Part shown: piece by piece, positions 1-13,148 of the stretch
How positions within the stretch are numbered: position 1 is the first letter of the stretch
How the letters are laid out: each line of letters begins with the position of its first letter
From: Acinetobacter sp. WCHAc010034
GTDB taxonomy: Bacteria; Pseudomonadota; Gammaproteobacteria; Pseudomonadales; Moraxellaceae
Length of the DNA: 13,204 nt
Assembly: GCF_001696615.3 (NCBI RefSeq)
Contig: NZ_CP032271.1
Coordinates: 1 to 13,204, forward strand
Reading direction: 5' to 3'
Notes under the pieces: generated by a model
Seen by the model: the letters and a program-made list of their open reading frames with translations, nothing else
Told to the model about the DNA's origin: nothing
Databases searched by the model: none
Position numbers and translations under genes: made by a program

Positions 1-954
1 ATGAGAGAATTAGTTGTAAAAGACAATGCCTTAATCAATGCAAGCTATAATTTGGATTTAGTAGAACAACGTTTAATCTTATTGGCGATTGTTGAAGCAA
101 GAGAAAGTGGCAAAGGGATTAATGCTAATGATCCCCTTGAAGTACATGCAGAAGGTTATATCAATCAATTTGGCGTACACCGCAATACTGCTTATCAAGC
201 CTTAAAAGATGCCTGTAATGATTTATTCGCAAGACAATTCAGTTATCAGAAAATAAATGAAAGAGGGAATATTGAGAATTATAGATCCCGTTGGGTTAGT
301 GAAATTGGATATGTAGATAATGAAGCCGTGGTTAAGCTTATTTTTGCCCCAGCAATAGTCCCATTAATTACACGCTTAGAAGAACACTTCACTAAATACG
401 AATTACAGCAAGTTAGTAATCTCAGCAGTGCTTATGCTGTGCGTCTATATGAGCTATTGATTGCATGGAGAAGTATCGGCTCTACTCCAGTTATAGAGCT
501 AAGTGATTTCCGACAACGAATTGGTGTGCTTGATACAGAGTACAAGCGCATGGAGCGCTTTAAAACGAGTGTACTAGAGCTTGCTCTTAAACAAATTAAC
601 GAACATACAGATATCACTGTAAAGTATGAACAGCATAAAAAAGGGCGCTCAATTTACGGATTTTCATTCACATTTAAACAAAAGAAAGTGGATGCTCCGT
701 CTGTAGGAAATAAAGACCCAAACACAATAGATCTATTTTCAAAATTATCAGACTCTCAACGCTATTTGTTTGCTAACAAACTTTCTGAACTCCCTGAAAT
801 GGGAAAATATTCCCAGGGCACAGAAAGCTATCAGCAATTTTCCATTCGCATTGCCGAAATGCTGCAAGATCCCGAACGCTTTAAAGAACTATACCCATAC
901 TTAAAAAAAGTGGGATATATGCCATCCAATAAAAAGGACACAGTAAATGGCTAA
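1..954 (+). CDS. repB: Rep_3-family plasmid replication initiator RepB
   Basis: This protein initiates plasmid replication by binding the iterons that lie just upstream across the circular junction and opening the origin. It has 317 residues, a normal length for Acinetobacter Rep_3 proteins. The N-terminus (LVVKDNALINASYNLDLVEQ, residues 4-23) is the conserved start of the first winged-helix domain, and a second winged-helix region follows at roughly residues 130-225. The ATG is the first base of the window; upstream across the junction there is only a weak GGTG-like ribosome site. A 19-bp-arm inverted repeat at 13153-13202 ends two bases before the ATG and probably serves RepB autorepression. 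The gene overlaps the next one by 8 bp, so the two are likely cotranscribed. Family assignment is from recognisable motifs and context; no search was run. Confidence 0.93.
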   Translation: MRELVVKDNALINASYNLDLVEQRLILLAIVEARESGKGINANDPLEVHAEGYINQFGVHRNTAYQALKDACNDLFARQFSYQKINERGNIENYRSRWVSEIGYVDNEAVVKLIFAPAIVPLITRLEEHFTKYELQQVSNLSSAYAVRLYELLIAWRSIGSTPVIELSDFRQRIGVLDTEYKRMERFKTSVLELALKQINEHTDITVKYEQHKKGRSIYGFSFTFKQKKVDAPSVGNKDPNTIDLFSKLSDSQRYLFANKLSELPEMGKYSQGTESYQQFSIRIAEMLQDPERFKELYPYLKKVGYMPSNKKDTVNG

Positions 955-1834: not shown

Positions 1835-1862
1835 ATTTCGCATAACGTGCATTATGTTAATT
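1835..1862 (+). other. pdif site 1 (XerC|XerD orientation)
   Basis: Arm ATTTCGCATAA (XerC), 6-bp spacer CGTGCA, arm TTATGTTAATT (XerD) gives the 28-bp layout of Acinetobacter plasmid dif sites. It marks the boundary between the rep backbone and the Abi_2/DUF4145 cassette, whose other edge is the oppositely oriented site at 4029. Confidence 0.92.
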
Positions 1863-1892
1863 TTAGAAAAACTAAACTTTTAAGTAGATGAG

Positions 1893-1918
1893 TACTAAAT
1901 TTAATATTTAATTTAGTA
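1893..1918. promoter_or_regulatory. Palindrome upstream of the Abi_2 gene (possible operator)
   Basis: Arms TACTAAATT (1893-1901) and AATTTAGTA (1910-1918) flank an AT centre, giving a near-perfect 26-bp palindrome. It lies 8 bp before a TTGACA -35-like element, which suggests a repressor-binding site, but AT-rich palindromes also arise by chance. Confidence 0.35.
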
Positions 1919-1926
1919 TCATTCTC

Positions 1927-1956
1927 TTGACATAAGCAATCTACATTCTTTACATT
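1927..1956 (+). promoter_or_regulatory. Candidate promoter of the Abi_2 gene
   Basis: A perfect -35 TTGACA (1927-1932) is followed after 18 bp by TACATT (1951-1956), a weak -10. A transcript from here would have a ~75-base leader before the ATG at 2035, including a small hairpin (ATCATA/TATGAT, about 1983-2001). Confidence 0.4.
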
Positions 1957-2034
1957 AGTTCTAACGACGCCTGTAATGGAGATCATAATAATTTTATGAT
2001 ATACATTATGGGCTTTTCTATTTTTATTAACTAG

Positions 2035-3000
2035 ATGAATACTTTACAAGAATATTGCAAACCATATATATCACCCCAAAAATTAGTTTTAGATTATTTA
2101 ATATCTAAAAAAGGGCTAGCTATTCAAGATAATGAAATTGAATTTGCTGAACAGGCTCTATCTCAAATTAATTGGTATCATCTAAAAATTTACTTCTACC
2201 CATTCATTGAGGATTTAACTGCTGAGGAAGAACGATATAAACCTCAAACAAATTTTCGTAATGGATGGGACATTTATTTATTAGATGATGAGTTAAGAAA
2301 AATTGTAATTAAGCACACACTAAAAATAGAGTTGATTGTTAAAAGCCATATAGATCAGGCAATTACTGAGTTTACAGAAGATCCTTTTTGGTACCTCAAT
2401 GATGATTACTTTATAAAAAATAAACAGCCTTATTATGAAAGAAACAAGGTTCTGGGTAGTATGAATAGCTCAGATGCAGAGTTTACAAAACATTTCCAAA
2501 AAAACTATAAAAGTCCTTATAAATCATATAGATCACTTCCTCCATTTTGGATAGCTATGGAAGTAATTACTTTTGATCAGTTTTTAAAAATTATAGAAAA
2601 AGTGAATCCCCAAATTTTTGAAAAAAGGGGAGAAAATGCTTTAGACAAATGTGCAATGAAATTAGGTGCAGAAAATTTCAAACAGCTAAAAAGTTGGCTA
2701 GAAGTTATAAAAGATATCCGAAATAAAGGGTGTCATAATAGTCGATTATGGAACGCTAATCATATGATCCCGAAGGGACTTGATATACATTCACAGCCAA
2801 TAGAAAGTTTGTCTAAACCTCATAAAATATATTTAGTTACGTTAGCCATATTTTTAATGACTAAAAATTCTGTTGCGATTGATAAGAATATTAAAGAAGA
2901 ATTAGAAGAGCTTTTTGAAGCTTATGGAAGCAAGATCAATGATCTAGAGAAACAAATGGGCTTCCCTGAAAGTTGGGCTACAAAGGCTATATGGACTTAA
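2035..3000 (+). CDS. Abi_2 / AbiD-AbiF family abortive infection protein
   Basis: This 321-residue protein is of the length and pattern of Abi_2 (AbiD/AbiF-like) proteins, linked in Lactococcus and elsewhere to abortive phage infection and built on a HEPN-type RNase fold. Typical features are the N-terminal segment that opens with a Gln-Lys-Leu helix start (SPQKLVLDYLISKKGLAI, residues 13-30), the helix with YHLKIYFYPF (48-57), the LPPFWIAMEVITF segment (168-180) and a Rx4H motif, RNKGCH, at residues 229-234, matching the HEPN catalytic signature. The start is fixed by an in-frame TAG directly before the ATG; no clear Shine-Dalgarno is visible, so translation may be weak or controlled. It shares the cassette with a convergent DUF4145 gene. 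The anti-phage role is inferred from the family. Confidence 0.82.
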   Translation: MNTLQEYCKPYISPQKLVLDYLISKKGLAIQDNEIEFAEQALSQINWYHLKIYFYPFIEDLTAEEERYKPQTNFRNGWDIYLLDDELRKIVIKHTLKIELIVKSHIDQAITEFTEDPFWYLNDDYFIKNKQPYYERNKVLGSMNSSDAEFTKHFQKNYKSPYKSYRSLPPFWIAMEVITFDQFLKIIEKVNPQIFEKRGENALDKCAMKLGAENFKQLKSWLEVIKDIRNKGCHNSRLWNANHMIPKGLDIHSQPIESLSKPHKIYLVTLAIFLMTKNSVAIDKNIKEELEELFEAYGSKINDLEKQMGFPESWATKAIWT

Positions 3001-3007
3001 TGAACCA

Positions 3008-3225
3008 GAATCTCTCCCCATATACCATCTGTTATCGTTTCGGGTATGAGCGTTTGTGTTTTACCACATCTTCCCATGCACCTAGACGATAGCGACGATA
3101 TGATCGGACGTTGACTAATTTCTCAGACATTGTCTATCTCCTATCTAATAAAGTCAGTTTTGGGAACTGACACCCATGCTTAGCTAAAAATATGCTTATA
3201 CAATGGGTAAGAATTGGAGAGATTC
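3008..3225. repeat. 10-bp inverted repeats bracketing the 32-codon mini-gene
   Basis: GAATCTCTCC at 3008-3017 is repeated inverted as GGAGAGATTC at 3216-3225. They bracket a 218-bp unit containing the mini-gene at 3032-3130 and a 7-bp-stem hairpin (GTCAGTT 3153-3159, AACTGAC 3165-3171). The layout resembles a miniature mobile unit, but no target-site duplication is visible. Confidence 0.4.
3032..3130 (-). CDS. Small basic protein, 32 residues, unknown function
   Basis: The minus-strand frame opens with ATG at 3130-3128, 5 bases after an AGGAG ribosome site (3138-3142), and runs 32 codons to TAA. The product is strongly basic with several aromatic residues, including RSYRRYRLGAWEDV and a tail KHKRSYPKR. 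The good ribosome site and skewed, non-random composition argue for a real gene. It lies downstream of and on the same strand as the DUF4145 gene, and tail-to-tail with the Abi_2 gene. I cannot name a family; nucleic-acid binding is only a guess from charge. Confidence 0.5.
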   Translation of the reverse strand: MSEKLVNVRSYRRYRLGAWEDVVKHKRSYPKR

Positions 3226-3264
3226 CTTGAAGGGAATTATATCTAACTATCTATTTTTTTAAAG

Positions 3265-3963
3265 TTAATATTCTACTTTTTTTAAATGATCTTTAGATGC
3301 TTTTAACTCTTTAATCTTTTTTAGCCTTTCCTTTCTTTTATGGGCAGCTATATACCACTCATCAAATAACATTTCTAATAGGCTTATTAGAAGTTGAGCT
3401 TCATCTGGTTCAACATCAACAATAATATTGATATCTTTTTCCATATGAGCACCAATATTTCCTAGTGATCGAATAGAATCAATAGCTTCCCAAACTTCTG
3501 GTTCTATTTTATTTTCAATAGCTTTTATTTCTTCGAATAGATTTTTTTCTTTTACATTCCAAAAATCCCTTATCATTCCTTGAAGGCATCTTCTGGCTAA
3601 TGTTGCAGAGGCCTTTGGACTTAGGTCCTTAATTAAACAAGCTTCTTCATAATCATTAATAATTACTTCTGGAATGATGGCTGTTGAATATGTTTTTGAA
3701 CTGCTTTGTGGTAATAGATTCCAGGTTTTTTCTGGCTTTTCTTCGGGGGTATAATCGTATGTAGTAGCACTTTTAAAGAGTAGCGCTTTCGCTGATATTT
3801 CTTTGCATTCAGGATTCGGACAGACAACAATTATTGTATTCACCCCTACAAGACGATCATATTTATTATTGAGCCTAAATCTATGAGTACTATCACTATA
3901 ATTTTCGCTAGTTACTGTACAAGTATGATTACAATAAGGACATTTCCAAGGAAAAGAAGACAT
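3265..3963 (-). CDS. DUF4145 domain protein with N-terminal zinc ribbon
   Basis: This 232-residue protein has an AGGAAG ribosome site just upstream of its ATG at 3963. Its N-terminus has a likely zinc ribbon, C8-x2-C11 paired with C48-x4-C53. Residues ~103-180 match DUF4145: an acidic helix (NDYEEACLIKDL), the ASATLARRCLQGMIRDF helix (118-134) and RSLGNIGAH (165-173). DUF4145 is HEPN-related and often sits beside restriction or other defence genes. It converges with the Abi_2 gene and shares its pdif cassette, so a joint defence role is plausible but not shown. It could act as a nucleic-acid-binding partner, a nuclease or an antitoxin-like regulator. Confidence 0.75.
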   Translation of the reverse strand: MSSFPWKCPYCNHTCTVTSENYSDSTHRFRLNNKYDRLVGVNTIIVVCPNPECKEISAKALLFKSATTYDYTPEEKPEKTWNLLPQSSSKTYSTAIIPEVIINDYEEACLIKDLSPKASATLARRCLQGMIRDFWNVKEKNLFEEIKAIENKIEPEVWEAIDSIRSLGNIGAHMEKDINIIVDVEPDEAQLLISLLEMLFDEWYIAAHKRKERLKKIKELKASKDHLKKVEY

Positions 3964-4028
3964 ATTACTTCCTATAAATTGAATTAGATTTTACTATGAA
4001 TATTTGAATAATATAAGTTTATACAGTT

Positions 4029-4056
4029 ATTTAACATAAAATCTCTTATGCGAAAT
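4029..4056 (-). other. pdif site 2 (XerD|XerC on the plus strand)
   Basis: On the minus strand it reads ATTTCGCATAA (XerC), spacer GAGATT, TTATGTTAAAT (XerD). It separates the Abi_2/DUF4145 cassette from the Fic cassette and is inverted relative to both neighbouring sites (1835 and 5751). Confidence 0.9.
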
Positions 4057-4093
4057 TCGACTGTAAGCCCAAAGTAGAAATGTCCTAGATAAA

Positions 4094-4139
4094 GTGAGCT
4101 GATTAATCATTTTATTCGGCTCACAATATGAGCCGAATA
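4094..4139 (+). promoter_or_regulatory. Competing inverted repeats over the fic start codon
   Basis: An 11-bp perfect stem (4113-4123 with 4129-4139, core ATTCGGCTCA / TGAGCCGAAT) surrounds the ATG at 4128-4130. An upstream GTGAGC (4094-4099) can instead pair with GCTCAC (4119-4124), which would break the first hairpin. No Shine-Dalgarno is visible. This could be an operator with TGAGC half-sites or a translational switch. Confidence 0.5.
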
Positions 4140-5303
4140 GATGCTATATTTAACTCATCTGAAATTTTAGATGAGCGATTGAAAATGCAGGAATGGATCT
4201 GGCAAGCTGAAAACTGGACAAATTTTACATGGCTAGATTCAATTATCTTGCCTAAAACCAGACAGATACATCAAAAAATAGGGATTCTTCTTGGGCAAAG
4301 TCAGCATGATTTAGCAAAAGAACAGTTCACCCTAGATACTCTGCTTGCCAATCTTGTTGCCTCATCTGCAATTGAAAACGAAACTATCAATGTTTTTTCA
4401 TTGCGATCATCTCTAGCTCAACGTTTAGGTGTCACACTTGAACAGCCTTATCCCAGCTCAGATCGATCAGAAGGTTTAGCTAATATCATGCTAGATGCGC
4501 TTAATGATGTTAAGCAACCACTGACTGTTGAGCGTCTCATGCAATGGCATCGTTGGCTTTTCAATGACCCAGATTGGACAATGCAACGTTTACGCATTGG
4601 TCAACTTCGAGGATCAGAGCCTATGCAGGTCGTTTCAGGTCGATTGGATTACCCTAAAGTACATTTTGAAGCACCGCCAAGAGAAGGCTTAGAAGAACGC
4701 TTAAACACCTTCATAGCGTGGTTTAATCAGAGTCTGAATGATTCATTGCTTGATCCTCTATTACGTGCAGGCATTACCCATTTATGGTTTGTTACCCTAC
4801 ATCCTTTTGATGATGGTAATGGACGTATTACACGTACACTTACAGACCTTGCTTTAGCTCAAATGGATGAACAAAGCATCCGTTTATATGCAATGTCTAC
4901 TGCGATATTGAATAAACGTAAAAGTTACTATGAAATATTAGAACAAACCCAAAAAAATGATTCTGATATCACAGATTGGCTAGTTTGGTTTTTAGATACA
5001 TTGAATGATAGCCTTGAAAAAACCTTAGCACAGATCAATCGAATATTATTTAAAAGCCAGTTTTGGCATAAATATTCAAATTTAGCCCTGAGTGAAGAAC
5101 AACGCAAAGTCCTAAATCGTTTATTAGACGGTGGAGAAAATGGCTTTGAACATGGTATTAGTGCTTCACAATATCAAAAGGTTGCTAAAACAAGTAAGGC
5201 GACAGCTACTCGTCATTTATCCGACTTACTTGAGAAAGAATGTATCGTCAAATTGGAAGGTGGTGGACGTAATACACGCTACCAGATCAATACTCAGTTA
5301 TAG
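4128..5303 (+). CDS. Fic family protein (DUF4172 + Fic domain + C-terminal winged helix)
   Basis: Fic enzymes usually transfer AMP from ATP to Ser/Thr/Tyr of target proteins. The catalytic motif HPFDDGNGR is intact at residues 225-233, with a following Arg at 236. An N-terminal inhibitory motif S79-AI-E83-N84 (SxxxEN) indicates a class II Fic protein that blocks its own ATP site until relieved. Residues ~20-100 form the DUF4172-type N-terminal domain, and the flap is near 164-180 (EPMQVVSG). The C-terminal ~65 residues (YQKVAKTSKATATRHLSDLLEKE) look like a winged-helix DNA-binding domain. The ATG at 4128 gives 391 residues; Met20 (4185) is an alternative start. It is the only gene in its pdif cassette and is followed at once by a terminator. 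Targets are unknown. Confidence 0.88.
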   Translation: MSRIDAIFNSSEILDERLKMQEWIWQAENWTNFTWLDSIILPKTRQIHQKIGILLGQSQHDLAKEQFTLDTLLANLVASSAIENETINVFSLRSSLAQRLGVTLEQPYPSSDRSEGLANIMLDALNDVKQPLTVERLMQWHRWLFNDPDWTMQRLRIGQLRGSEPMQVVSGRLDYPKVHFEAPPREGLEERLNTFIAWFNQSLNDSLLDPLLRAGITHLWFVTLHPFDDGNGRITRTLTDLALAQMDEQSIRLYAMSTAILNKRKSYYEILEQTQKNDSDITDWLVWFLDTLNDSLEKTLAQINRILFKSQFWHKYSNLALSEEQRKVLNRLLDGGENGFEHGISASQYQKVAKTSKATATRHLSDLLEKECIVKLEGGGRNTRYQINTQL

Positions 5304-5317
5304 ATATTTAAGCAATA

Positions 5318-5346
5318 AAAAACCCCGGCATCCTGCCGGGGTTTTT
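5318..5346 (+). terminator. Rho-independent terminator after fic
   Basis: A 13-bp perfect stem (AAAAACCCCGGCA 5318-5330, TGCCGGGGTTTTT 5334-5346) with a 3-base loop and terminal T5 lies 14 bp after the fic stop codon. Confidence 0.92.
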
Positions 5347-5655
5347 CGTATTGGTTCGCTCGGTATAACTCCTGTCGTACCTTACAGTCCTTGTGCGTAT
5401 CGTTGTTCTTATTATTGTCTGGAACTTCCTGTTCTCCATGTCCCCATGATATGAAATTGCAGCCAGGCCGCATAGGCGCAAAGGGCCGTAATTGCTGTGA
5501 GCATATGCGTACAAGGCCGGCTAAAAACTGTCCTCTTTTTATCCGCAGAAATTGGGGATAATTTTCTCCCTGGGAAGGACGGGAACACTGAAAAAAGTTC
5601 CAACTTGATTAAAAAATAATCAAATTTATTGGCAATAACTATCAAAACTGTTCAT
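5347..5655. other. Non-coding stretch with foreign-looking composition
   Basis: About 300 bases between the fic terminator and the next hairpin hold no convincing gene. Bases ~5347-5590 are richer in G+C than the surrounding cassettes. A minus-strand frame (5645-5412, 77 codons) contains a hydrophobic run (MLTAITALCAYAAWLQFHIM) but lacks a clear ribosome site, so it is probably a remnant of an unidentified insertion. Confidence 0.35.
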
Positions 5656-5688
5656 AAAAAAGCCGACTTATTTCATAGCCGGATTTTT
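5656..5688. terminator. Imperfect terminator-like hairpin before pdif site 3
   Basis: An A-run, CCGaCT stem half, short loop, AGcCGG stem half and T-run (AAAAAAGCCG ... CCGGATTTTT) fold into an imperfect hairpin with T-tracts usable on either strand. It could stop transcripts entering from either side. The 16-bp palindrome GTTAAAAATTTTTAAC follows at 5705-5720. Confidence 0.4.
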
Positions 5689-5750
5689 GCTATCTTTCAG
5701 GTCGGTTAAAAATTTTTAACTTGTTGAAAAACAAAATCTTTTTGTATTGC

Positions 5751-5778
5751 GTTTCGTATAACGCCCATTATGTTAAAT
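5751..5778 (+). other. pdif site 3 (XerC|XerD orientation)
   Basis: Arm GTTTCGTATAA (XerC, first base differs from the usual A), spacer CGCCCA, arm TTATGTTAAAT (XerD). It is the left edge of the formaldehyde cassette; the truncated NDH-2-like gene ends about 30-45 bp to its right. Confidence 0.9.
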
Positions 5779-5807
5779 AGAATGTAAATTAAGCTAAAAT
5801 TATGTTT

Positions 5808-5957
5808 TTAATGTAGACAAACCAAGAGCTGGAATAGGTGATAGTTGCGTCGATCGATGATCGTTATATTGATATCAGCGCCGGATAAGCCATTGACAGC
5901 GTCTAACCCACCGCAGCCTGCGCCGACAACAACATGATGCCGTTTGTCAGAGGCCAT
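5808..5957 (-). pseudogene. 5' fragment of an NDH-2-like NAD(P)/FAD-dependent oxidoreductase
   Basis: The minus-strand frame opens at ATG 5957-5955, 25 bp after the S-formylglutathione hydrolase stop, and ends after 49 codons. Residues 7-43 match the start of type II NADH dehydrogenase-like flavoproteins: HHVVVGAGCGGLDAV is the FAD-binding GxGxxG strand-turn-helix, followed by INITIIDRRNYHLFQ. A full-length enzyme is ~400 residues; here the similarity stops after LFQ (around 5825) and the frame ends at a stop near pdif site 3. The gene was evidently the last of the formaldehyde operon and was cut when the segment was joined to the pdif boundary. One Gly-to-Cys change in the nucleotide-binding loop (GAGCGG) is also visible. 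It should be inactive. Confidence 0.75.
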
Positions 5958-5982
5958 TTTTATTATCAGGGTCTCCTAATGT

Positions 5983-6816
5983 TCAGCGATTCAATGCGGC
6001 CGCATGGTGGGCCATGTGTTCGCTCAAGTAGGTCGAAATAAAGTAGTAGCTATGGTCATGACCAGGCCGCAGATTAAGCGTCAGCGGGTGGCCCACCTGT
6101 TCACACGCTGTACGCAACAGTTGCGGTCGAAGCTGGTGCTCAAGAAATTCATCGCTCAGTCCTTGATCGACAAGCAGCGGTAAGCGTTCTTGCGCCACGT
6201 GGATAAGCTCGACCGTGTCATATTGCTTCCATGCGTCCAGATTTTTTTCGCCCAAGTAAGCCGCCAGGGCCTTCTGTCCCCATGGAACTTGCGTAGGCGC
6301 CACGATAGGCGAGAACGCCGAGACACTTGCGTAGCGACCGGGGTTGCGAAGAGCAATAACCAGAGCGCCATGACCGCCCATGGAGTGCCCACTGATGCTG
6401 CGTCTTGACGACGCGGGGAAGTTCGCTTCGATCAGCGCTGGTAATTCGTCGACCACATAGGAATACATCTGATAGTGATCGCTCCAAGGTAGCTCTGTGG
6501 CGTCTACATAGAAACCCGCACCTTGACCGAGATCATAGGCAGCATCGTCTGCAACGCTTTCTCCGCGCGGGCTGGTATCTGGGGCTACGACAATGATTCC
6601 GTGCTCCGCTGCATACCGCTGCACCGAAGCCTTAGTGATGAAGTTCTGTTCGGTACAGGTCAGACCTGAGAGCCAGTACAGAACTGGGAGCTTTTCATGC
6701 TCAGCCTGAGGCGGAAGATAGATTCCAAACCTCATCATGCAGCCAAGCACTGTTGACTCATGCTGAAAAACGTCCTGCCAACCCTCGAAGCTGGCGTGAT
6801 GTTCAATGCGTTCCAC
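5983..6816 (-). CDS. fghA: S-formylglutathione hydrolase (FrmB/FghA)
   Basis: This cytoplasmic esterase splits S-formylglutathione into formate and glutathione, the second step of glutathione-dependent formaldehyde detoxification. I chose the GTG at 6816 (277 residues): it follows an AAGGAGAAA ribosome site by ~7 bases and aligns with the usual N-terminus (VERIEHHASFEGWQDVF). An ATG at 6858 in the same frame would add 14 residues absent from the family. The catalytic triad is visible: Ser145 in GHSMGG, Asp222 in GLSDEF and His255 in GHDHSYYF. Other family hallmarks are LPVLYWLSGLTC (43-54), APDTSPRG (78-85) and YDLGQGAGFYVDAT. The gene lies ~470 bp downstream of the VOC gene on the same strand; it is GC-rich relative to the backbone. 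Confidence 0.95.
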   Translation of the reverse strand: MERIEHHASFEGWQDVFQHESTVLGCMMRFGIYLPPQAEHEKLPVLYWLSGLTCTEQNFITKASVQRYAAEHGIIVVAPDTSPRGESVADDAAYDLGQGAGFYVDATELPWSDHYQMYSYVVDELPALIEANFPASSRRSISGHSMGGHGALVIALRNPGRYASVSAFSPIVAPTQVPWGQKALAAYLGEKNLDAWKQYDTVELIHVAQERLPLLVDQGLSDEFLEHQLRPQLLRTACEQVGHPLTLNLRPGHDHSYYFISTYLSEHMAHHAAALNR

Positions 6817-6858
6817 GGATTTTCTCCTTATTTCAACGAGGTGGTGCTCAGGCGCCAA

Positions 6859-7286
6859 TCAAGACGACTTTTCGTCCCATTCAGGATTAGTTAAAAACGC
6901 TTCACCGCACCACTCATCAGGTTTCCAGCGTTGTCGCTGGCATGAGGATCGCTGCTACAAACCCAGACATCACCACACCACGAAGGTCGGATGTCGGCTT
7001 CAATGTACAAGCAATAAAGTGTGTAATTCAGGGAGGCACTACCGCGATGCCTATTTCGAATTCTGTGTTTCTTGCATCACGCACCGAACTTTTAGTCCGA
7101 TCGTGTTTATTGACCGTCTTTGGCCATGAAGGCGAGGCAACATCTTTCTGAGCTCTAATCAGCAGATAGATATTCAGAGTACTATAAACCGTGTGGAATG
7201 AGCGGGCATGCCACACGGTTGCGGTGGAAGATGAAATCGTTTTGGCTGGAATCAGCCTTTTCACAATAACCTCACTTCCCCTAGTT
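6859..7286 (-). pseudogene. Gap with probable decayed gene between the VOC and hydrolase genes
   Basis: This ~430-bp gap in the operon has no intact gene. On the minus strand two coding-looking pieces lie in different frames: ...TLKPTSDLRGVVMSGFVAAILMP... (about 7030-6925) and PDEWCGEAFLTNPEWDEKSS ending at TGA 6861-6859. One or more small indels would join them, so a former gene is plausible, but I cannot name it. A GTG frame with a GAGG ribosome site at 7264 (78 codons to 7028) does not look like a folded protein. A 10-bp inverted repeat, AACCGTGTGG (7187-7196) / CCACACGGTT (7211-7220), with a 14-base loop is also here. Confidence 0.35.
7187..7220. repeat. 10-bp inverted repeat inside the operon gap
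   Basis: AACCGTGTGG and CCACACGGTT are perfectly complementary across a 14-base loop. There is no T-tract on either side, so it is not a classical terminator. It could be an operator, an RNA-processing hairpin within the operon transcript, or a leftover of the decayed gene. Confidence 0.55.
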
Positions 7287-7685
7287 TTAGACAAAGGTGT
7301 AGGCGCAGACCTTATTACCAGCAGGATCACGCAGGTAGGCCGCGTAAGCACCCGGCAGGTGGCCACGTGGGCCAGGCTGACCTTCATCGGTGCCACCAGC
7401 GGCGAGGCCGGCTGCGTGGAATGCATTCACCTCTGCAGGAGTGGCAGCTGCGAAGCCTACCGTCACACCATTGCTGGTTGGTTCTGCACCATTGCCTGGG
7501 CGGGCGATCATGAAAGCAGGTTTGTCGCGACCGTACAGAACCCAATCGTTACCAAATGGTCCTAGGTTTTTAATGCCGAGGGCACCTAAAGTGGCATCGT
7601 AGAATGCAACCGACTTATTAAGGTCGACTGCGCCGAGGAAGACATGGGAGAAAATGTCGTTACCGGAAATTACTGGAATAGCCAT
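7287..7685 (-). CDS. VOC family (glyoxalase/bleomycin-resistance fold) protein
   Basis: This 132-residue single-domain vicinal-oxygen-chelate protein lies between the formaldehyde dehydrogenase and hydrolase genes. The βαβββ pattern is seen in IFSHVFLGAVDLNKSVAFYDATLGALG (11-37) and AYAAYLRDPAGNKVCAYTF near the C-terminus, the classic VOC ending with the D-P-x-G-N-K turn. An AAGGAAA ribosome site precedes the ATG at 7685; the adhC stop is 52 bp upstream. Family members bind a metal and act on small electrophiles such as methylglyoxal conjugates; here a role with a glutathione adduct is suggested by the neighbours only. The exact substrate is unknown. Confidence 0.85.
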   Translation of the reverse strand: MAIPVISGNDIFSHVFLGAVDLNKSVAFYDATLGALGIKNLGPFGNDWVLYGRDKPAFMIARPGNGAEPTSNGVTVGFAAATPAEVNAFHAAGLAAGGTDEGQPGPRGHLPGAYAAYLRDPAGNKVCAYTFV

Positions 7686-7737
7686 TAAAGTGTTTCCTTG
7701 ATGGATGGTTCTGAAAAATCAGGTAGTGATCCATGGA

Positions 7738-8868
<1,131 letters not shown>

Positions 8869-9144
8869 TTATTTTAAATATGACTTAAGAATCTTTGCTA
8901 TTTCAGCAAGTTCTTCGTTTCGTTGTTGTTCTGTAGTTTCTCCAGATACTAGAGTGTCTTTTAAGTGAACCTCTAGCATCTCATTCATTAGACCATTAAT
9001 GGCACCGCGTACAGAACAGATTTGTTGCAGAATGGCATTACATTCCACATTGCTTTCTAGCGCTTTTTCAATCGCTTCAGCCTGACCCTTGATTCGTCTG
9101 ACACGCGTCAGAATCTTTTTTTTATCTTCGACTTGATTTGGCAT
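8869..9144 (-). CDS. frmR: Formaldehyde-responsive repressor FrmR (CsoR/RcnR family)
   Basis: This all-helical 91-residue repressor shuts off the operon until formaldehyde reacts with it. The residues used by E. coli FrmR are all present: Pro2 next to Met1, Cys35 (SNVECNAIL) and His60 (EMLEVHLKD). Pro2 and Cys35 of neighbouring subunits are cross-linked by formaldehyde in the E. coli protein, which releases DNA. Family hallmarks are LTRVRRIKGQAEAIEKALE (12-30) and QQICSVRGAINGLMNEML (40-57). An AAGGA ribosome site lies 8 bases before ATG 9144. It is the first gene of the operon. Its base composition is nearer the AT-rich backbone than that of adhC and fghA, hinting at a mosaic operon. Confidence 0.93.
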   Translation of the reverse strand: MPNQVEDKKKILTRVRRIKGQAEAIEKALESNVECNAILQQICSVRGAINGLMNEMLEVHLKDTLVSGETTEQQRNEELAEIAKILKSYLK

Positions 9145-9167
9145 AAAGCTAATTCCTTAAAGTTTCT

Positions 9168-9202
9168 TATAGTATAGTACCCTATAGTATATGGAATGAC
9201 AA
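9168..9202 (-). promoter_or_regulatory. frmR operon promoter with overlapping FrmR operator
   Basis: On the minus strand -35 TTGTCA (9202-9197), 17-bp spacer and -10 TACTAT (9179-9174) form a good promoter. The region 9168-9192 has TATACTATA-type half-sites around a short G/C tract (ATATACTATA GGG TACTATACTATA on the minus strand, written in parts), the layout of CsoR/FrmR operators, covering the spacer and -10. Binding would block RNA polymerase, so repression relieved by formaldehyde is expected. Confidence 0.7.
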
Positions 9203-9255
9203 GAAACCTTTATAAACTTAATAATTGATAAAAGCTTTGAATAGCCACCAAAACT

Positions 9256-10128
9256 CTAGACACACATAACCATCTTTTGATGGGACTTTTCATAATCTAA
9301 TGGAGAACGTTGTCCATTGGAACCATGTCTTCTTTTTGAGTTATAAAACATTTCAATATATTCAAAGATATCTGACCTCGCTTCAGTTCTTGATGCATAG
9401 TTTCTCTTCTTAACTCGTTCCCGTTTTAATAGCTGGAAAAAGCTTTCTGCAACAGCATTATCATGGCAATTGCCTCTACGACTCATACTGCATTCCAAAT
9501 TATGTTGTTTAAGGAATGCTTGCCATTCATGACTGGTATATTGGCTGCCTTGGTCAGAATGAATCAAAACCTTGTTCTTTGGTTTTCTCCGCCATAAAGC
9601 CATCAATAACGCATCTAGCACAAGATCTGTAGTCATTCTTGATTTCATAGACCACCCAACAACAAGGCGTGAAAATAGATCAATTACAACAGCAAGATAT
9701 AACCAACCTTCATGTGTACGAATATACGTAATGTCTGTTACCCACTTCCGATTAGGCTGAGTTGGATTAAACTGTCGTTCTAAGGTGTTTGCGGAAACAA
9801 TACTTGGCGTACCTGCATAAGATCTAGGCTTGCGATAGCCGCGCTGTGATTTAAGCCCATTCGCTTTCATTAACCTATGCACCCGGTTGATACCGCAATT
9901 TTCGCCAACATCTTTCAAATCACAGTGAATCTTGCGATAGCCGTAGACTCCGCCAGATTCCAGCCAGAACTGTTTAATCAATCCTGAAAGCTGTTGTCGT
10001 TTCCTCGCAGTTTTACTAGTGGGTTGTTTCAACCATGCGTAATAACCACTGTGATGAACATCTAGAGTCGAACATAAACGACGAACAGACCATATGTGCT
10101 GATTGTCCTGAATAAAGGCATACCTCAT
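9256..10128 (-). CDS. IS3-family transposase OrfB (DDE integrase core)
   Basis: This 290-residue catalytic half has an N-terminal HTH_21-type region (VYGYRKIHCDLKD) and then an rve/DDE core. The acidic triad is visible as D in WVTDITYIRTHEGWLYLAVVID (the D of TDITY), D in IHSDQGSQYTS and E in NCHDNAVAESFFQLLK. The frame opens 5' of the orfA stop, so a fused OrfAB transposase is made by -1 frameshifting rather than from the ATG at 10128. The stop at 9256 lies inside the left terminal repeat, typical of the family. The gene appears intact. Confidence 0.93.
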   Translation of the reverse strand: MRYAFIQDNQHIWSVRRLCSTLDVHHSGYYAWLKQPTSKTARKRQQLSGLIKQFWLESGGVYGYRKIHCDLKDVGENCGINRVHRLMKANGLKSQRGYRKPRSYAGTPSIVSANTLERQFNPTQPNRKWVTDITYIRTHEGWLYLAVVIDLFSRLVVGWSMKSRMTTDLVLDALLMALWRRKPKNKVLIHSDQGSQYTSHEWQAFLKQHNLECSMSRRGNCHDNAVAESFFQLLKRERVKKRNYASRTEARSDIFEYIEMFYNSKRRHGSNGQRSPLDYEKSHQKMVMCV

Positions 10129-10412
10129 TTGGACTGGCTTGCGAAGTACACCGCGGCTTTTTTTAATATGTCCCTTTCTTCAGTAACTCTTTGCAACTCC
10201 TTTTTTAGCTTTGCCAATTCTGAAACTGCATCCCTAGAGTCTGTGATTTTAGGTTCTTGAGGAGCATAACGCTTGATCCAAGCATAAAGACTATGCGTGG
10301 TTGTACCTAAACGTGCGGCAACTTCAGCCACGCTATGACCTTTTTCAGTCACTTGCTTTACTGCTTCAATTTTGAATTCTTCAGGGTATCGTTTGCTACT
10401 GCTCATAAGCAC
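10125..10412 (-). CDS. IS3-family transposase OrfA (HTH_Tnp_1)
   Basis: This 95-residue protein has an N-terminal helix-turn-helix (RYPEEFKIEAVKQVTEKGHSV, AEVAARLGTTTHSLYAWIKRY) and a C-terminal heptad region (ELAKLKKELQRVTEERDILKKA) for dimerisation. It overlaps orfB by 4 bp at its stop, with the slippery run A7G on the minus strand at 10164-10157. It binds the IS ends; alone it usually restrains transposition, and fused to OrfB it forms the active enzyme. ATG 10412 could be preceded by other starts; Met3 also fits. Confidence 0.9.
   Translation of the reverse strand: MLMSSSKRYPEEFKIEAVKQVTEKGHSVAEVAARLGTTTHSLYAWIKRYAPQEPKITDSRDAVSELAKLKKELQRVTEERDILKKAAVYFASQSK
10157..10164 (-). promoter_or_regulatory. 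Programmed -1 frameshift slippery site
   Basis: The minus strand reads TTAAAAAAAGCC. A -1 slip on A AAA AAG takes the ribosome from the orfA frame (ILKKAAVYF) into the orfB frame (SRGVLRKPVQ then MRYAFI), giving the OrfAB fusion. This is the standard IS3-family mechanism. Confidence 0.8.
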
Positions 10413-10513
10413 CTCGTTAATTAGCCATTTTATCTAACTAAAAGGTGTCTACAAAATCGGTGGCTATTCACTTATAATTAAAAAATTCTACATCTATTTT
10501 TAAATTTTTCGAA

Positions 10514-10541
10514 AATTAACATAATACGCGTTATACGAATC
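10514..10541 (-). other. pdif site 4 (XerD|XerC on the plus strand)
   Basis: On the plus strand: AATTAACATAA (XerD arm), spacer TACGCG, TTATACGAATC (XerC arm, last base atypical). It is the right edge of the formaldehyde cassette. Its XerD arm and spacer are identical to those of site 7 at 11553, in the same orientation. Confidence 0.9.
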
Positions 10542-10545
10542 TAAG

Positions 10546-10568
10546 AATGGGAGCCTTTAGCTCCCATT
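10546..10568. terminator. Hairpin between pdif site 4 and the antitoxin gene
   Basis: A 9-bp stem AATGGGAGC (10546-10554) / GCTCCCATT (10560-10568) has a 5-base loop. T5 follows on the plus strand. It lies 22 bp after the minus-strand antitoxin stop and probably also ends that transcript, though T's are fewer on that side. Confidence 0.7.
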
Positions 10569-10589
10569 TTTACTATATTTTTTAAAGTT

Positions 10590-10880
10590 TTAGGCGTGTT
10601 GTACTGTGAGTTTTAGGCCTAAAGCATTCACTACACGATTAATCGTATCAAAACGTGGTGCTGAATCATGACGTAGGGCTTTGTAGAGTGCCTCACGCCC
10701 AATTCCTGCTTCTTTAGCGATTTGAGTCATACCACGAGCTTTAGCAATAACACCAAGTGCATGAGCTAATTCAGCTGGATCATTCTCTTCAAGAACCATA
10801 TTGAGATACATCACAATGTCTTCTTCAGTTTTGAGTGACTCAGCCATATCAAAACTTGGTAAATCAGCTACTTTAACCAC
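10590..10880 (-). CDS. HI1420/HigA-like addiction-module antitoxin, without its toxin
   Basis: This 96-residue protein matches the 'putative addiction module antidote' family (HI1420-like, Xre-type HTH). Residues 17-45 (KTEEDIVMYLNMVLEENDPAELAHALGVI) are the family's N-terminal helix pair; the helix-turn-helix follows at 47-80 (KARGMTQIAKEAGIGREALYKAL). I use the GTG at 10880 because GGAGG lies 6 bases upstream. Normally a RelE/HigB-type toxin gene immediately precedes it; here only 178 bp of AT-rich DNA separates it from pdif site 5 and no toxin frame is present. It may serve as an anti-addiction factor against a chromosomal or other plasmid toxin, or be a remnant. Confidence 0.8.
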   Translation of the reverse strand: MVKVADLPSFDMAESLKTEEDIVMYLNMVLEENDPAELAHALGVIAKARGMTQIAKEAGIGREALYKALRHDSAPRFDTINRVVNALGLKLTVQHA

Positions 10881-10890
10881 TTTAATCCTC

Positions 10891-10929
10891 CAACGTTTTC
10901 GATAGTTTGACTGCAGAATTCAACGTTTT
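10891..10929. promoter_or_regulatory. Paired 9-bp repeats upstream of the antitoxin gene (possible operator)
   Basis: CAACGTTTT occurs at 10891-10899 and again at 10921-10929, exactly 30 bp (about three helical turns) apart, each containing the palindrome AACGTT. The first copy lies 10 bp upstream of the GTG. Spacing on one DNA face suits cooperative binding by the HTH antitoxin itself; this is inference. Confidence 0.45.
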
Positions 10930-11058
10930 ATGTCCTCATAGAATTAATCAATATTTTTGAAAATGATATTCTTTTTAAATGGGAAGTCTATAATGATAGA
11001 TAAATGCAATTTAAATTAGATAGTTACCAATTTTCTAGAAATTTTATAGTTTTTCTGA

Positions 11059-11086
11059 AACTAACATAATACACCTTATACGAAGT
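11059..11086 (-). other. pdif site 5 (XerD|XerC on the plus strand)
   Basis: On the plus strand: AACTAACATAA (XerD arm), spacer TACACC, TTATACGAAGT (XerC arm). It closes the antitoxin cassette on the right; it is in the same orientation as site 4, so this cassette is bounded by directly repeated sites. Confidence 0.88.
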
Positions 11087-11552: not shown

Positions 11553-11580
11553 AATTAACATAATACGCGTTATGCGAAAG
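11553..11580 (-). other. pdif site 7 (XerD|XerC on the plus strand)
   Basis: On the plus strand: AATTAACATAA (XerD arm), spacer TACGCG, TTATGCGAAAG (XerC arm). It is the last pdif site, separating the cassettes from the backbone. Its XerC arm overlaps the left stem of a terminator by four bases. Confidence 0.9.
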
Positions 11581-13061: not shown

Positions 13062-13148
13062 ATATGACACCGTTTACCTTGCAATATGACACCGTTTACC
13101 TTGCAATATGACACCGTTTACCTTGCAATATGACACCGTTTACCTTGC
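13062..13148 (+). repeat. oriV iterons: four tandem 22-bp repeats
   Basis: The unit begins ATATGACACC and ends TTTACCTTGCA. Copies start at 13062, 13084, 13106 and 13128; the first three are identical and the fourth departs at its last base. Two turns of helix per unit put RepB monomers on one DNA face. They lie immediately upstream of repB across the circular junction, the standard Rep_3 origin, and set copy number and incompatibility. Confidence 0.95.

What the first reader, a model, noticed from the sequence alone, without database searches (positions are those of the whole stretch)
5751..10541. Formaldehyde detoxification operon packaged as a pdif module
frmR, adhC, a VOC gene and S-formylglutathione hydrolase lie between oppositely oriented XerC/D sites. 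Well-known Acinetobacter pdif modules mostly carry antibiotic-resistance, metal-resistance or toxin-antitoxin genes; a complete glutathione-dependent formaldehyde pathway as a mobile module would extend the cargo to aldehyde or disinfectant tolerance. Plasmid-borne formaldehyde dehydrogenase is known from resistant Enterobacteria (E. coli VU3695), so the chemistry is established while the vehicle may be new.
Basis: partly seen in the sequence, partly recalled or inferred. Interest (0 to 1): 0.78.

Follow-up and report, generated by a model that had tools for sequence, protein, structure and literature searches.

The report
Formaldehyde-detox operon in pdif module
A small Acinetobacter plasmid carries a ready-made set of genes for sensing and destroying formaldehyde, packaged between two recombination sites as a movable cassette that also sits in other plasmids, including hospital strains; both the cassette type and the pathway are known, but I found no report of the combination.

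Summary
The window looks like a whole 13.2-kb Acinetobacter Rep_3 plasmid with seven pdif-like sites (none in shuffles). 5751-10541 is a D-type pdif module holding frmR, adhC, a VOC gene and fghA on the minus strand.

Forty-six Acinetobacter plasmid records match the operon. In 13 of 14 fetched relatives it lies between sites of the same inverse orientation. Within each of two module versions homology stops at the 6-bp spacers while neighbours vary (some share short stretches): strong evidence that it moves as a unit. Among 175 Acinetobacter species genomes only this window has a full-length fghA-VOC match.

The cargo is a hybrid: Acinetobacter-type frmR before Pseudomonas-like adhC-VOC-fghA-oxidoreductase. 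A shorter version, mostly in A. baumannii, has another adhC allele.

The host chromosome already has adhC and fghA, so added tolerance is plausible but untested. Two published 'alcohol dehydrogenase' dif modules that I located are different genes. Nine literature searches found no paper describing this module. Verdict: a real, new member of a known kind.

The parts
5751..5778 (+). left pdif site, C|D, spacer CGCCCA; outer end of the D module
   Evidence: the same 24-base core occurs at two places on co-resident contig C7
5779..5966 (-). 5' remnant of an NAD(P)/FAD-dependent oxidoreductase gene; the rest is deleted relative to L009
   Evidence: tblastn with the protein of L009 and with the E. 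coli plasmid homologue
5983..6816 (-). fghA, S-formylglutathione hydrolase (277 aa)
   Evidence: TIGR02821 403 bits, over cut-off; solved homologues; GHSMG motif
6817..7286 (-). non-coding or decayed stretch between fghA and VOC; a like stretch lies between VOC and fghA in Pseudomonas L093 (74% DNA identity)
7287..7685 (-). VOC/glyoxalase-superfamily protein gene (132 aa), role unknown
   Evidence: Pfam PF00903; beside adhC in 79 of the 80 genome loci fetched
7738..8847 (-). adhC/frmA, S-(hydroxymethyl)glutathione dehydrogenase (369 aa)
   Evidence: TIGR02818 729 bits, over cut-off; human class III ADH as a solved homologue
8869..9144 (-). frmR-like repressor gene (91 aa) with Pro2, Cys35 and His60
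   Evidence: PF02583; best solved match FrmR 5lcy; residues; below the NF008464 cut-off
9145..9237 (-). frmR leader: promoter-like TTGTCA-17-TACTAT (9202-9174) overlapping the near-palindromic operator candidate ATACTATAGGGTACTATACTATA
   Evidence: a like motif, seen by eye and without a control, stands before frmR in L009, L010, L052 and E. coli plasmid L053. The promoter scan is at chance level (5 found, 4.8 expected)
9238..10470 (-). IS3-family insertion sequence (1,233 bp; ORFs 10125-10412 and 9256-10128), target duplication CTT
10471..10513 (-). distal end of the module beyond the IS, matching relatives without the IS
10514..10541 (-). right pdif site, D|C, spacer CGCGTA; outer end of the D module
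1..954 (+). repM (Rep_3 initiator) of the carrying plasmid
   Evidence: NF038290 501 bits, PF01051
947..1522 (+). plasmid replication DNA-binding protein gene, taken to be the OrfX of Rep_3/OrfX plasmids
   Evidence: NF038291; the equation with OrfX is my inference
13062..13148 (+). four 22-bp direct repeats at the end of the contig, taken to be the iterons

Best explanation
5751-10541 is a D-type Acinetobacter pdif module. The host's XerC/XerD recombinases exchange it between plasmids at its two inversely oriented sites, by strand exchange within the 6-bp spacers with partner sites of matching spacer. Its cargo is a second, inducible, glutathione-dependent formaldehyde pathway: FrmR sits on the operator before frmR until formaldehyde inactivates it; AdhC oxidises S-hydroxymethylglutathione to S-formylglutathione; FghA hydrolyses that to formate and glutathione. 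Shown here: sites, gene identities, exchangeable contexts with breakpoints at the spacers, hybrid origin. Inferred: XerC/D as the agent, the operator and FrmR sensing, operon transcription, any gain in tolerance. The chemistry is established knowledge of these enzyme families.
For: Both sites in 13 of 14 fetched relatives. In the 12 modules aligned (window and 11 relatives) the left XerD arm and the last three spacer bases (CCA) are identical in 12 of 12, the right last three spacer bases (GTA) in 12 of 12 and the right XerD arm in 11 of 12; outside, XerC arms and flanks vary. L010 and L012 share their left neighbour (94% over 400 bp) but carry different versions of the module; L010 and L051 carry the same version and share the right neighbour (99% over 400 bp) but not the left one. 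Site counts: 54 in the window and 13 relatives against 1 in the reversed sequences. Gene families. No stops in frmR, adhC and fghA in 13 of 14 relatives. Contig C7 of the same genome has a D module bounded by the same two spacers, CGCCCA and CGCGTA, with an 81% similar left flank.
Against: No movement was observed and no phenotype measured. Flanks of different copies are not wholly unrelated: many share stretches of about 50-150 bp, and some pairs more. FrmR scores below the NCBIfam equivalog cut-off. The chromosome already has adhC and fghA, so the module may add little. The two module spacers differ from each other, so by the usual rule the module should not invert or leave by itself; it needs partner sites. 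This copy is eroding (truncated oxidoreductase, IS), and so are others: L011 has frame breaks in adhC, VOC and fghA, L045 in VOC, and L048 has an IS1 in VOC.
Confidence: 0.82

Rival explanations
1. The vehicle reading is right, but the cargo is kept for another substrate: formaldehyde released inside the cell by metabolism (demethylation of aromatics, C1 compounds), or S-nitrosoglutathione, which class III ADH also reduces. Disinfectants then play no part.
For: AdhC is an ordinary class III ADH. The gene is nearly universal in the genus: 170 of 175 species genomes match the operon DNA, in the rows listed mostly in the adhC part (capped list). A search listing names A. baumannii gsnoR mutants sensitive to nitrosative stress (PMC12914303, start of abstract).
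Against: An FrmR-type repressor and the paired fghA point to formaldehyde rather than nitric oxide. The source of the formaldehyde cannot be read from sequence.
Confidence: 0.35
2. The pdif sites are incidental: the operon spread by ordinary homologous recombination or with whole plasmids, and Xer recombination plays no part.
For: Many of the 46 records are near-identical plasmids of A. baumannii. Neighbouring flanks often share stretches of 50-150 bp and sometimes more, which could serve homologous recombination. The adhC allele swap inside the module shows homologous recombination at work.
Against: Within each version the homology ends at the 6-bp spacer on both sides in differing neighbourhoods. 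Homologous recombination would not place the ends there so regularly.
Confidence: 0.06
3. A transposon or composite IS element carries the operon, as in Tn6901.
For: Tn6901 carries frmB-glo-frmA-frmR (PMC6737455, one passage), and an IS3-family element lies in the module.
Against: Only one IS copy is in the module, with its own 3-bp target duplication and the empty site in relatives. None of the 14 window proteins scanned matches a Tn3-type transposase or resolvase family. Relatives lacking the IS have the same pdif ends.
Confidence: 0.02

Closest known systems
Acinetobacter dif (pdif) modules such as tet39, msrE-mphE, chromate, sulP
   Same: 28-bp XerC/XerD-type sites in inverse orientation, D module, Rep_3 plasmid, interchangeable neighbours
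   Different: Cargo is a formaldehyde pathway with an FrmR-type repressor. From passages of PMC13141974 and PMC6863613 and section 23 of PMC9455709
dif-6874, dif-7136 and dif-2111 of GR13 plasmids ('putative alcohol dehydrogenases', PMC9455709)
   Same: pdif modules with dehydrogenase genes
   Different: Located by their lengths: dif-6874 (pOCUAc17-1, 33353-40282) and dif-7136 (p3ABAYE, 28546-35737) hold other zinc-ADH, SDR and LysR genes; the frmR-adhC-fghA cluster of those plasmids lies outside them. dif-2111 is described as LysR plus an NAD(P)-dependent ADH (passage); its sequence was not seen
frmR-adhC-fghA cluster of large Acinetobacter plasmids (p1_005046, p3ABAYE, pOCUAc17-1) and LAC-4 island GI11
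   Same: same pathway; in p1_005046 frmR is 85% identical to the window's at the DNA level, and AdhC is 99.5% identical to that of the short module version
   Different: no VOC gene annotated beside it; no pdif sites in the 17 kb of p1_005046, one on one side only in pOCUAc17-1, none within 5.4 kb in the half of p3ABAYE read. GI11 from PMC4345345 passages only
Tn6901 of Rts1 and the frm cluster of E. coli plasmid pEc19
   Same: frmR, frmA, glyoxalase/VOC and frmB/fghA together on mobile DNA
   Different: Tn6901 is a transposon with tnpA-res-tnpR (PMC6737455 passage; sequence not seen). pEc19 has a DUF3422 gene, uvrA/uvrB neighbours and no pdif site in 13.1 kb
frmR-adhC-VOC-fghA-oxidoreductase locus of Pseudomonas sp. 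ZH-FAD (L093)
   Same: adhC 92%, VOC 89%, fghA 90%, gap 74% identical DNA, in the same order
   Different: its frmR genes are 37% (before adhC) and 45% (further downstream) identical in protein to the window's; no pdif site in 12.4 kb

Membership tests
Acinetobacter pdif (dif) module | two 28-bp sites of 11-6-11 architecture in inverse orientation bounding the cargo | tested here: met
Acinetobacter pdif (dif) module | same module in different neighbourhoods with breakpoints at the sites | tested here: met
   12 modules aligned; 13 of 14 fetched relatives with both sites; the exception L050 is a linear fragment without the left end
Acinetobacter pdif (dif) module | alternating C and D modules round the plasmid | tested here: inconclusive
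   alternation holds except between 10514 (D|C) and 11059 (D|C), where a fused module must be assumed
Acinetobacter pdif (dif) module | Rep_3/OrfX backbone | tested here: met
   RepM NF038290, replication DNA-binding protein NF038291, 22-bp repeats; OrfX equated by inference
Acinetobacter pdif (dif) module | movement depends on XerC and XerD | not testable with these tools
   needs recombination assays
FrmR-regulated glutathione-dependent formaldehyde operon | S-(hydroxymethyl)glutathione dehydrogenase | tested here: met
   TIGR02818 729 bits, cut-off 544
FrmR-regulated glutathione-dependent formaldehyde operon | S-formylglutathione hydrolase | tested here: met
   TIGR02821 403 bits, cut-off 282
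FrmR-regulated glutathione-dependent formaldehyde operon | FrmR repressor | tested here: inconclusive
   PF02583 met; NF008464 109 bits against cut-off 133, so that cut-off is not met; Pro2, Cys35, His60 present and 5lcy/5lbm FrmR are the best solved matches. The role of Pro2 and Cys35 is recalled
FrmR-regulated glutathione-dependent formaldehyde operon | FrmR operator before frmR | tested here: inconclusive
   an ATACTATAGGG...TATA-like motif seen by eye in window, L009, L010, L052 and L053; no chance control, no binding test
FrmR-regulated glutathione-dependent formaldehyde operon | induction by formaldehyde and detoxification | not testable with these tools
   needs the bench
Tn6901-type transposon | tnpA-res-tnpR and terminal repeats bounding the operon | tested here: not met
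   only an IS3-family transposase among the window proteins scanned

The most novel reading that the evidence does not exclude
dif modules act as operon-building platforms: within one pdif-bounded unit a native Acinetobacter frmR promoter-operator unit was joined to a Pseudomonas-derived adhC-VOC-fghA-oxidoreductase block. The dehydrogenase was replaced at least once while the ends stayed fixed, giving a swappable, inducible aldehyde-tolerance cassette that circulates in clinical A. baumannii plasmids.
Probability: 0.3. Interest if true: 0.55.

Novelty: new member of a known kind. Interest (0 to 1): 0.4.

Why it matters
It widens the documented cargo of Xer-exchanged modules to a self-regulated detoxification pathway, with breakpoints clean to the spacer. 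Because the same cassette lies in plasmids of A. baumannii, A. haemolyticus, A. pittii and unnamed Acinetobacter, many from patients, it is a natural case for asking whether biocide or metabolic formaldehyde selects pdif exchange. The matching spacer pair on a second plasmid-like contig of the same genome makes the exchange directly testable by PCR.

Tried and rejected
Chance sites: rejected. DUF3422 remnant between fghA and VOC: my first idea from the Comamonas and E. coli clusters. It is not supported: tblastn of two DUF3422 proteins finds nothing there, and the stretch aligns with the gap in Pseudomonas L093; my notebook entry still carries the old idea. Identity with published ADH dif modules: rejected for dif-6874 and dif-7136. 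Two of these records were read whole (AP024799, CP022299), the others in part: p3ABAYE 1-50000 of 94413, pDETAB5 1-50000 of 97035, CP068175 1-100000 of 120510. E. coli genomes: no near DNA match to the operon, which at this sensitivity would also miss the 78%-identical E. coli plasmid cluster. Rfam: no match in the window. Promoter scan: 5 found against 4.8 expected, so it is no evidence by itself. Literature: nine searches gave no paper describing a formaldehyde pdif module; most subscription papers and all supplements were out of reach. Term finds with no occurrence of the formaldehyde, glutathione and dehydrogenase terms asked for: PMC5559437, PMC10272872, PMC9501444, PMC6449649, PMC7315799. 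The FrmR operator search listed one paper that I did not open. PMC6776055 passages were irrelevant.
Full report
Where it is. The window is contig C5 (13,204 bp) of a 3.84-Mb, 13-contig Acinetobacter genome. It starts at the repM start codon and ends just after four 22-bp repeats, so it looks like a whole Rep_3 plasmid; circularity was not tested. RepM and the replication DNA-binding protein score well over their NCBIfam cut-offs.

The sites. Seven pdif-like sites match within 3 mismatches; 200 shuffles gave none. Their order is C|D 1835, D|C 4029, C|D 5751, D|C 10514, D|C 11059, C|D 11165, D|C 11553. The stretch 5751-10541 has XerD arms inside at both ends, which PMC13141974 (passages) calls a D module.

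The cargo. On the minus strand: frmR, adhC, VOC, fghA. AdhC and FghA pass curated equivalog cut-offs. FrmR passes the Pfam family but not the FrmR equivalog cut-off; it has Pro2, Cys35 and His60, and its best solved relatives are two FrmR proteins. That Pro2 and Cys35 react with formaldehyde in FrmR is recalled. Before frmR lies ATACTATAGGGTACTATACTATA. A like motif stands before frmR in L009, L010, a large Acinetobacter plasmid (L052) and an E. coli plasmid (L053); this was seen by eye, without a control. A promoter-like TTGTCA-17-TACTAT overlaps it, in a scan that is at chance level.

An IS3-family element (9238-10470) sits 93 bp upstream of the frmR start, with target duplication CTT. Relatives L009 and L010 show the uninterrupted site, and four fully identical copies lie elsewhere in the genome. 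The promoter and operator candidates lie between IS and frmR, so the insertion leaves them intact. At the other end about 60 codons of an NAD(P)/FAD oxidoreductase remain; L009 has the whole gene.

It occurs elsewhere as a unit. A near search with the operon (5983-9144) finds 60 of 72,556 plasmid records; 46 are Acinetobacter, and 43 of the 60 have at least 80% of the operon in one place. By my count of that full listing the 46 are 38 A. baumannii, 5 A. haemolyticus, 1 A. pittii and 2 unnamed; many are near-identical plasmids. I fetched 14 of the 46, chosen for differing lengths. Thirteen of 14 have C|D on the left and D|C on the right; the other (L050) is a linear fragment without the left end. 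In L045, recorded as linear, the left site is reached only by treating it as circular. Site counts over the window and those 13 records are 54, against 1 in reversed sequences.

State of the copies. frmR, adhC and fghA show no stops in 13 of 14 relatives, and all four genes are full-length in 11 of 14. L011 has frame breaks in adhC, VOC and fghA; L045 has one in VOC; L048 has an IS1 in VOC, and its adhC runs across the ends of the record.

Breakpoints. In 12 aligned modules (window and 11 relatives; L183 and L184 were fetched later) the left XerD arm and the last three spacer bases (CCA) are the same in all 12. On the right the last three spacer bases (GTA) are the same in all 12 and the XerD arm in 11. 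Inside the left site there are two sequences: one with the oxidoreductase end (window, L009, L011, L012, L049) and one without it (the other seven); each is nearly constant within its group. Beyond the spacer XerC arms and flanks differ, though many flanks share stretches of about 50-150 bp, and some pairs most of the 400 bp compared. L010 and L012 share the left neighbour (94% over 400 bp) but carry the short and the long version. L011, L045 and L049 share the adjacent 141 bp (94%), and L045 is short while the others are long. L010 and L051 share the right neighbour (99%) but not the left. Module lengths are 3,628-3,643 bp (short), 4,951-4,967 bp (long), 4,258 bp with the IS1 (L048), and 4,791 bp here.

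Hybrid origin. frmR is 38% G+C; adhC, VOC and fghA are 55-56%. Among the 80 named loci fetched by the VOC protein the closest in DNA is Pseudomonas L093 (92, 89, 74 and 90% identity for adhC, VOC, gap and fghA, in the same order). Its two frmR genes are only 37 and 45% identical in protein, and it has no pdif site in 12.4 kb. The nearest other frmR genes examined outside the modules are Acinetobacter ones (85-91% DNA). In the short version (L010) fghA, VOC, gap and leader are 92-97% identical to the window and frmR 89.5%, but adhC drops to 74%, and its protein is 99.5% identical to that of large plasmid L052. So adhC was exchanged inside the module; which version is older is not settled.

Not a chromosomal locus as far as seen. 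In 175 Acinetobacter species genomes the fghA-VOC segment matches over its length only in the window; the other 39 genomes with a match have partial hits of at most 73% identity. This samples one genome per species and scores two candidates each. Of the 175, 170 match the operon DNA somewhere, in the listed rows mostly in the adhC and frmR part (capped list). The own chromosome-sized contig holds an adhC (85% identical protein) and an unlinked fghA. A second repressor of the family lies elsewhere, by my reading of the ORFs between transporter genes.

How it could move. The two spacers of the module differ (CGCCCA, CGCGTA), so partner sites are needed. The genome has 50 sites within one mismatch, against 0 for the control pattern. 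Contig C7 (11,378 bp, with a RepM gene) has a D module bounded by the same two spacers at 8920 and 9551, and a second pair at 2598 and 2994. The 491 bp ending in the left site here are 81% identical to the corresponding stretch of C7. An exchange of D modules between the two is thus predicted; none was observed.

Prior work. [quoted passage not shown] I located dif-6874 and dif-7136 in the records by their lengths: both hold other dehydrogenases, and the frmR-adhC-fghA cluster of the same plasmids lies outside them. PMC13141974 lists an alcohol dehydrogenase among dif cargoes (passage). Tn6901 carries frmB-glo-frmA-frmR (PMC6737455 passage). Nine searches gave no paper on a formaldehyde pdif module in the held library.

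Verdict. The finding is real and the packaging is strongly supported; tolerance is untested and may be small given the chromosomal copies. It is a new member of a known kind.

Noticed in passing
window 1835-4056: Neighbouring D module carries an Abi_2/AbiD-like gene (2035-3000) and a DUF4145 gene matching the phage-defence model PD-T7-4 (3265-3963): candidate defence cargo in a pdif module.
   Followed up: partly
window 4029-5778: C module with a Fic protein matching the defence model SoFic (4128-5303), followed by a stretch (about 5304-5750) that recurs next to a pdif site on C7 and is matched in 94 plasmid records.
   Followed up: partly
window 10514-11086: Two D|C sites in the same orientation in a row, enclosing an addiction-module antidote gene (10590-10880) with no toxin gene recognised beside it: probably a fused or eroded module. 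Contig C7 has a similar-looking antidote ORF next to a 109-aa ORF (by eye).
   Followed up: partly
window 10514-10541 and 11553-11580: Both D|C sites have the spacer CGCGTA in direct orientation, so loss of the 1.04 kb between them is predicted.
   Followed up: no
own genome contig C13 (L083, L084 and further places): The chromosome-sized contig has 16 pdif-like sites within one mismatch, including a CGCCCA/CGCGTA pair near 3,563,445-3,564,091; one may be the chromosomal dif, the rest suggest dif modules or plasmids in the chromosome.
   Followed up: no
L010 8414-9523 against window 7738-8847: adhC allele replaced within an otherwise 90-97% identical module; sharp drop at the VOC/adhC border.
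   Followed up: partly
L052, L185, L191: Large Acinetobacter plasmids carry a separate frmR-adhC-fghA cluster that is not in a two-sided pdif module as far as read; pOCUAc17-1, p3ABAYE and pAJ1044-2 also carry a uvrA gene, and the E. coli plasmid L053 has uvrB and uvrA flanking its frm cluster.
   Followed up: partly
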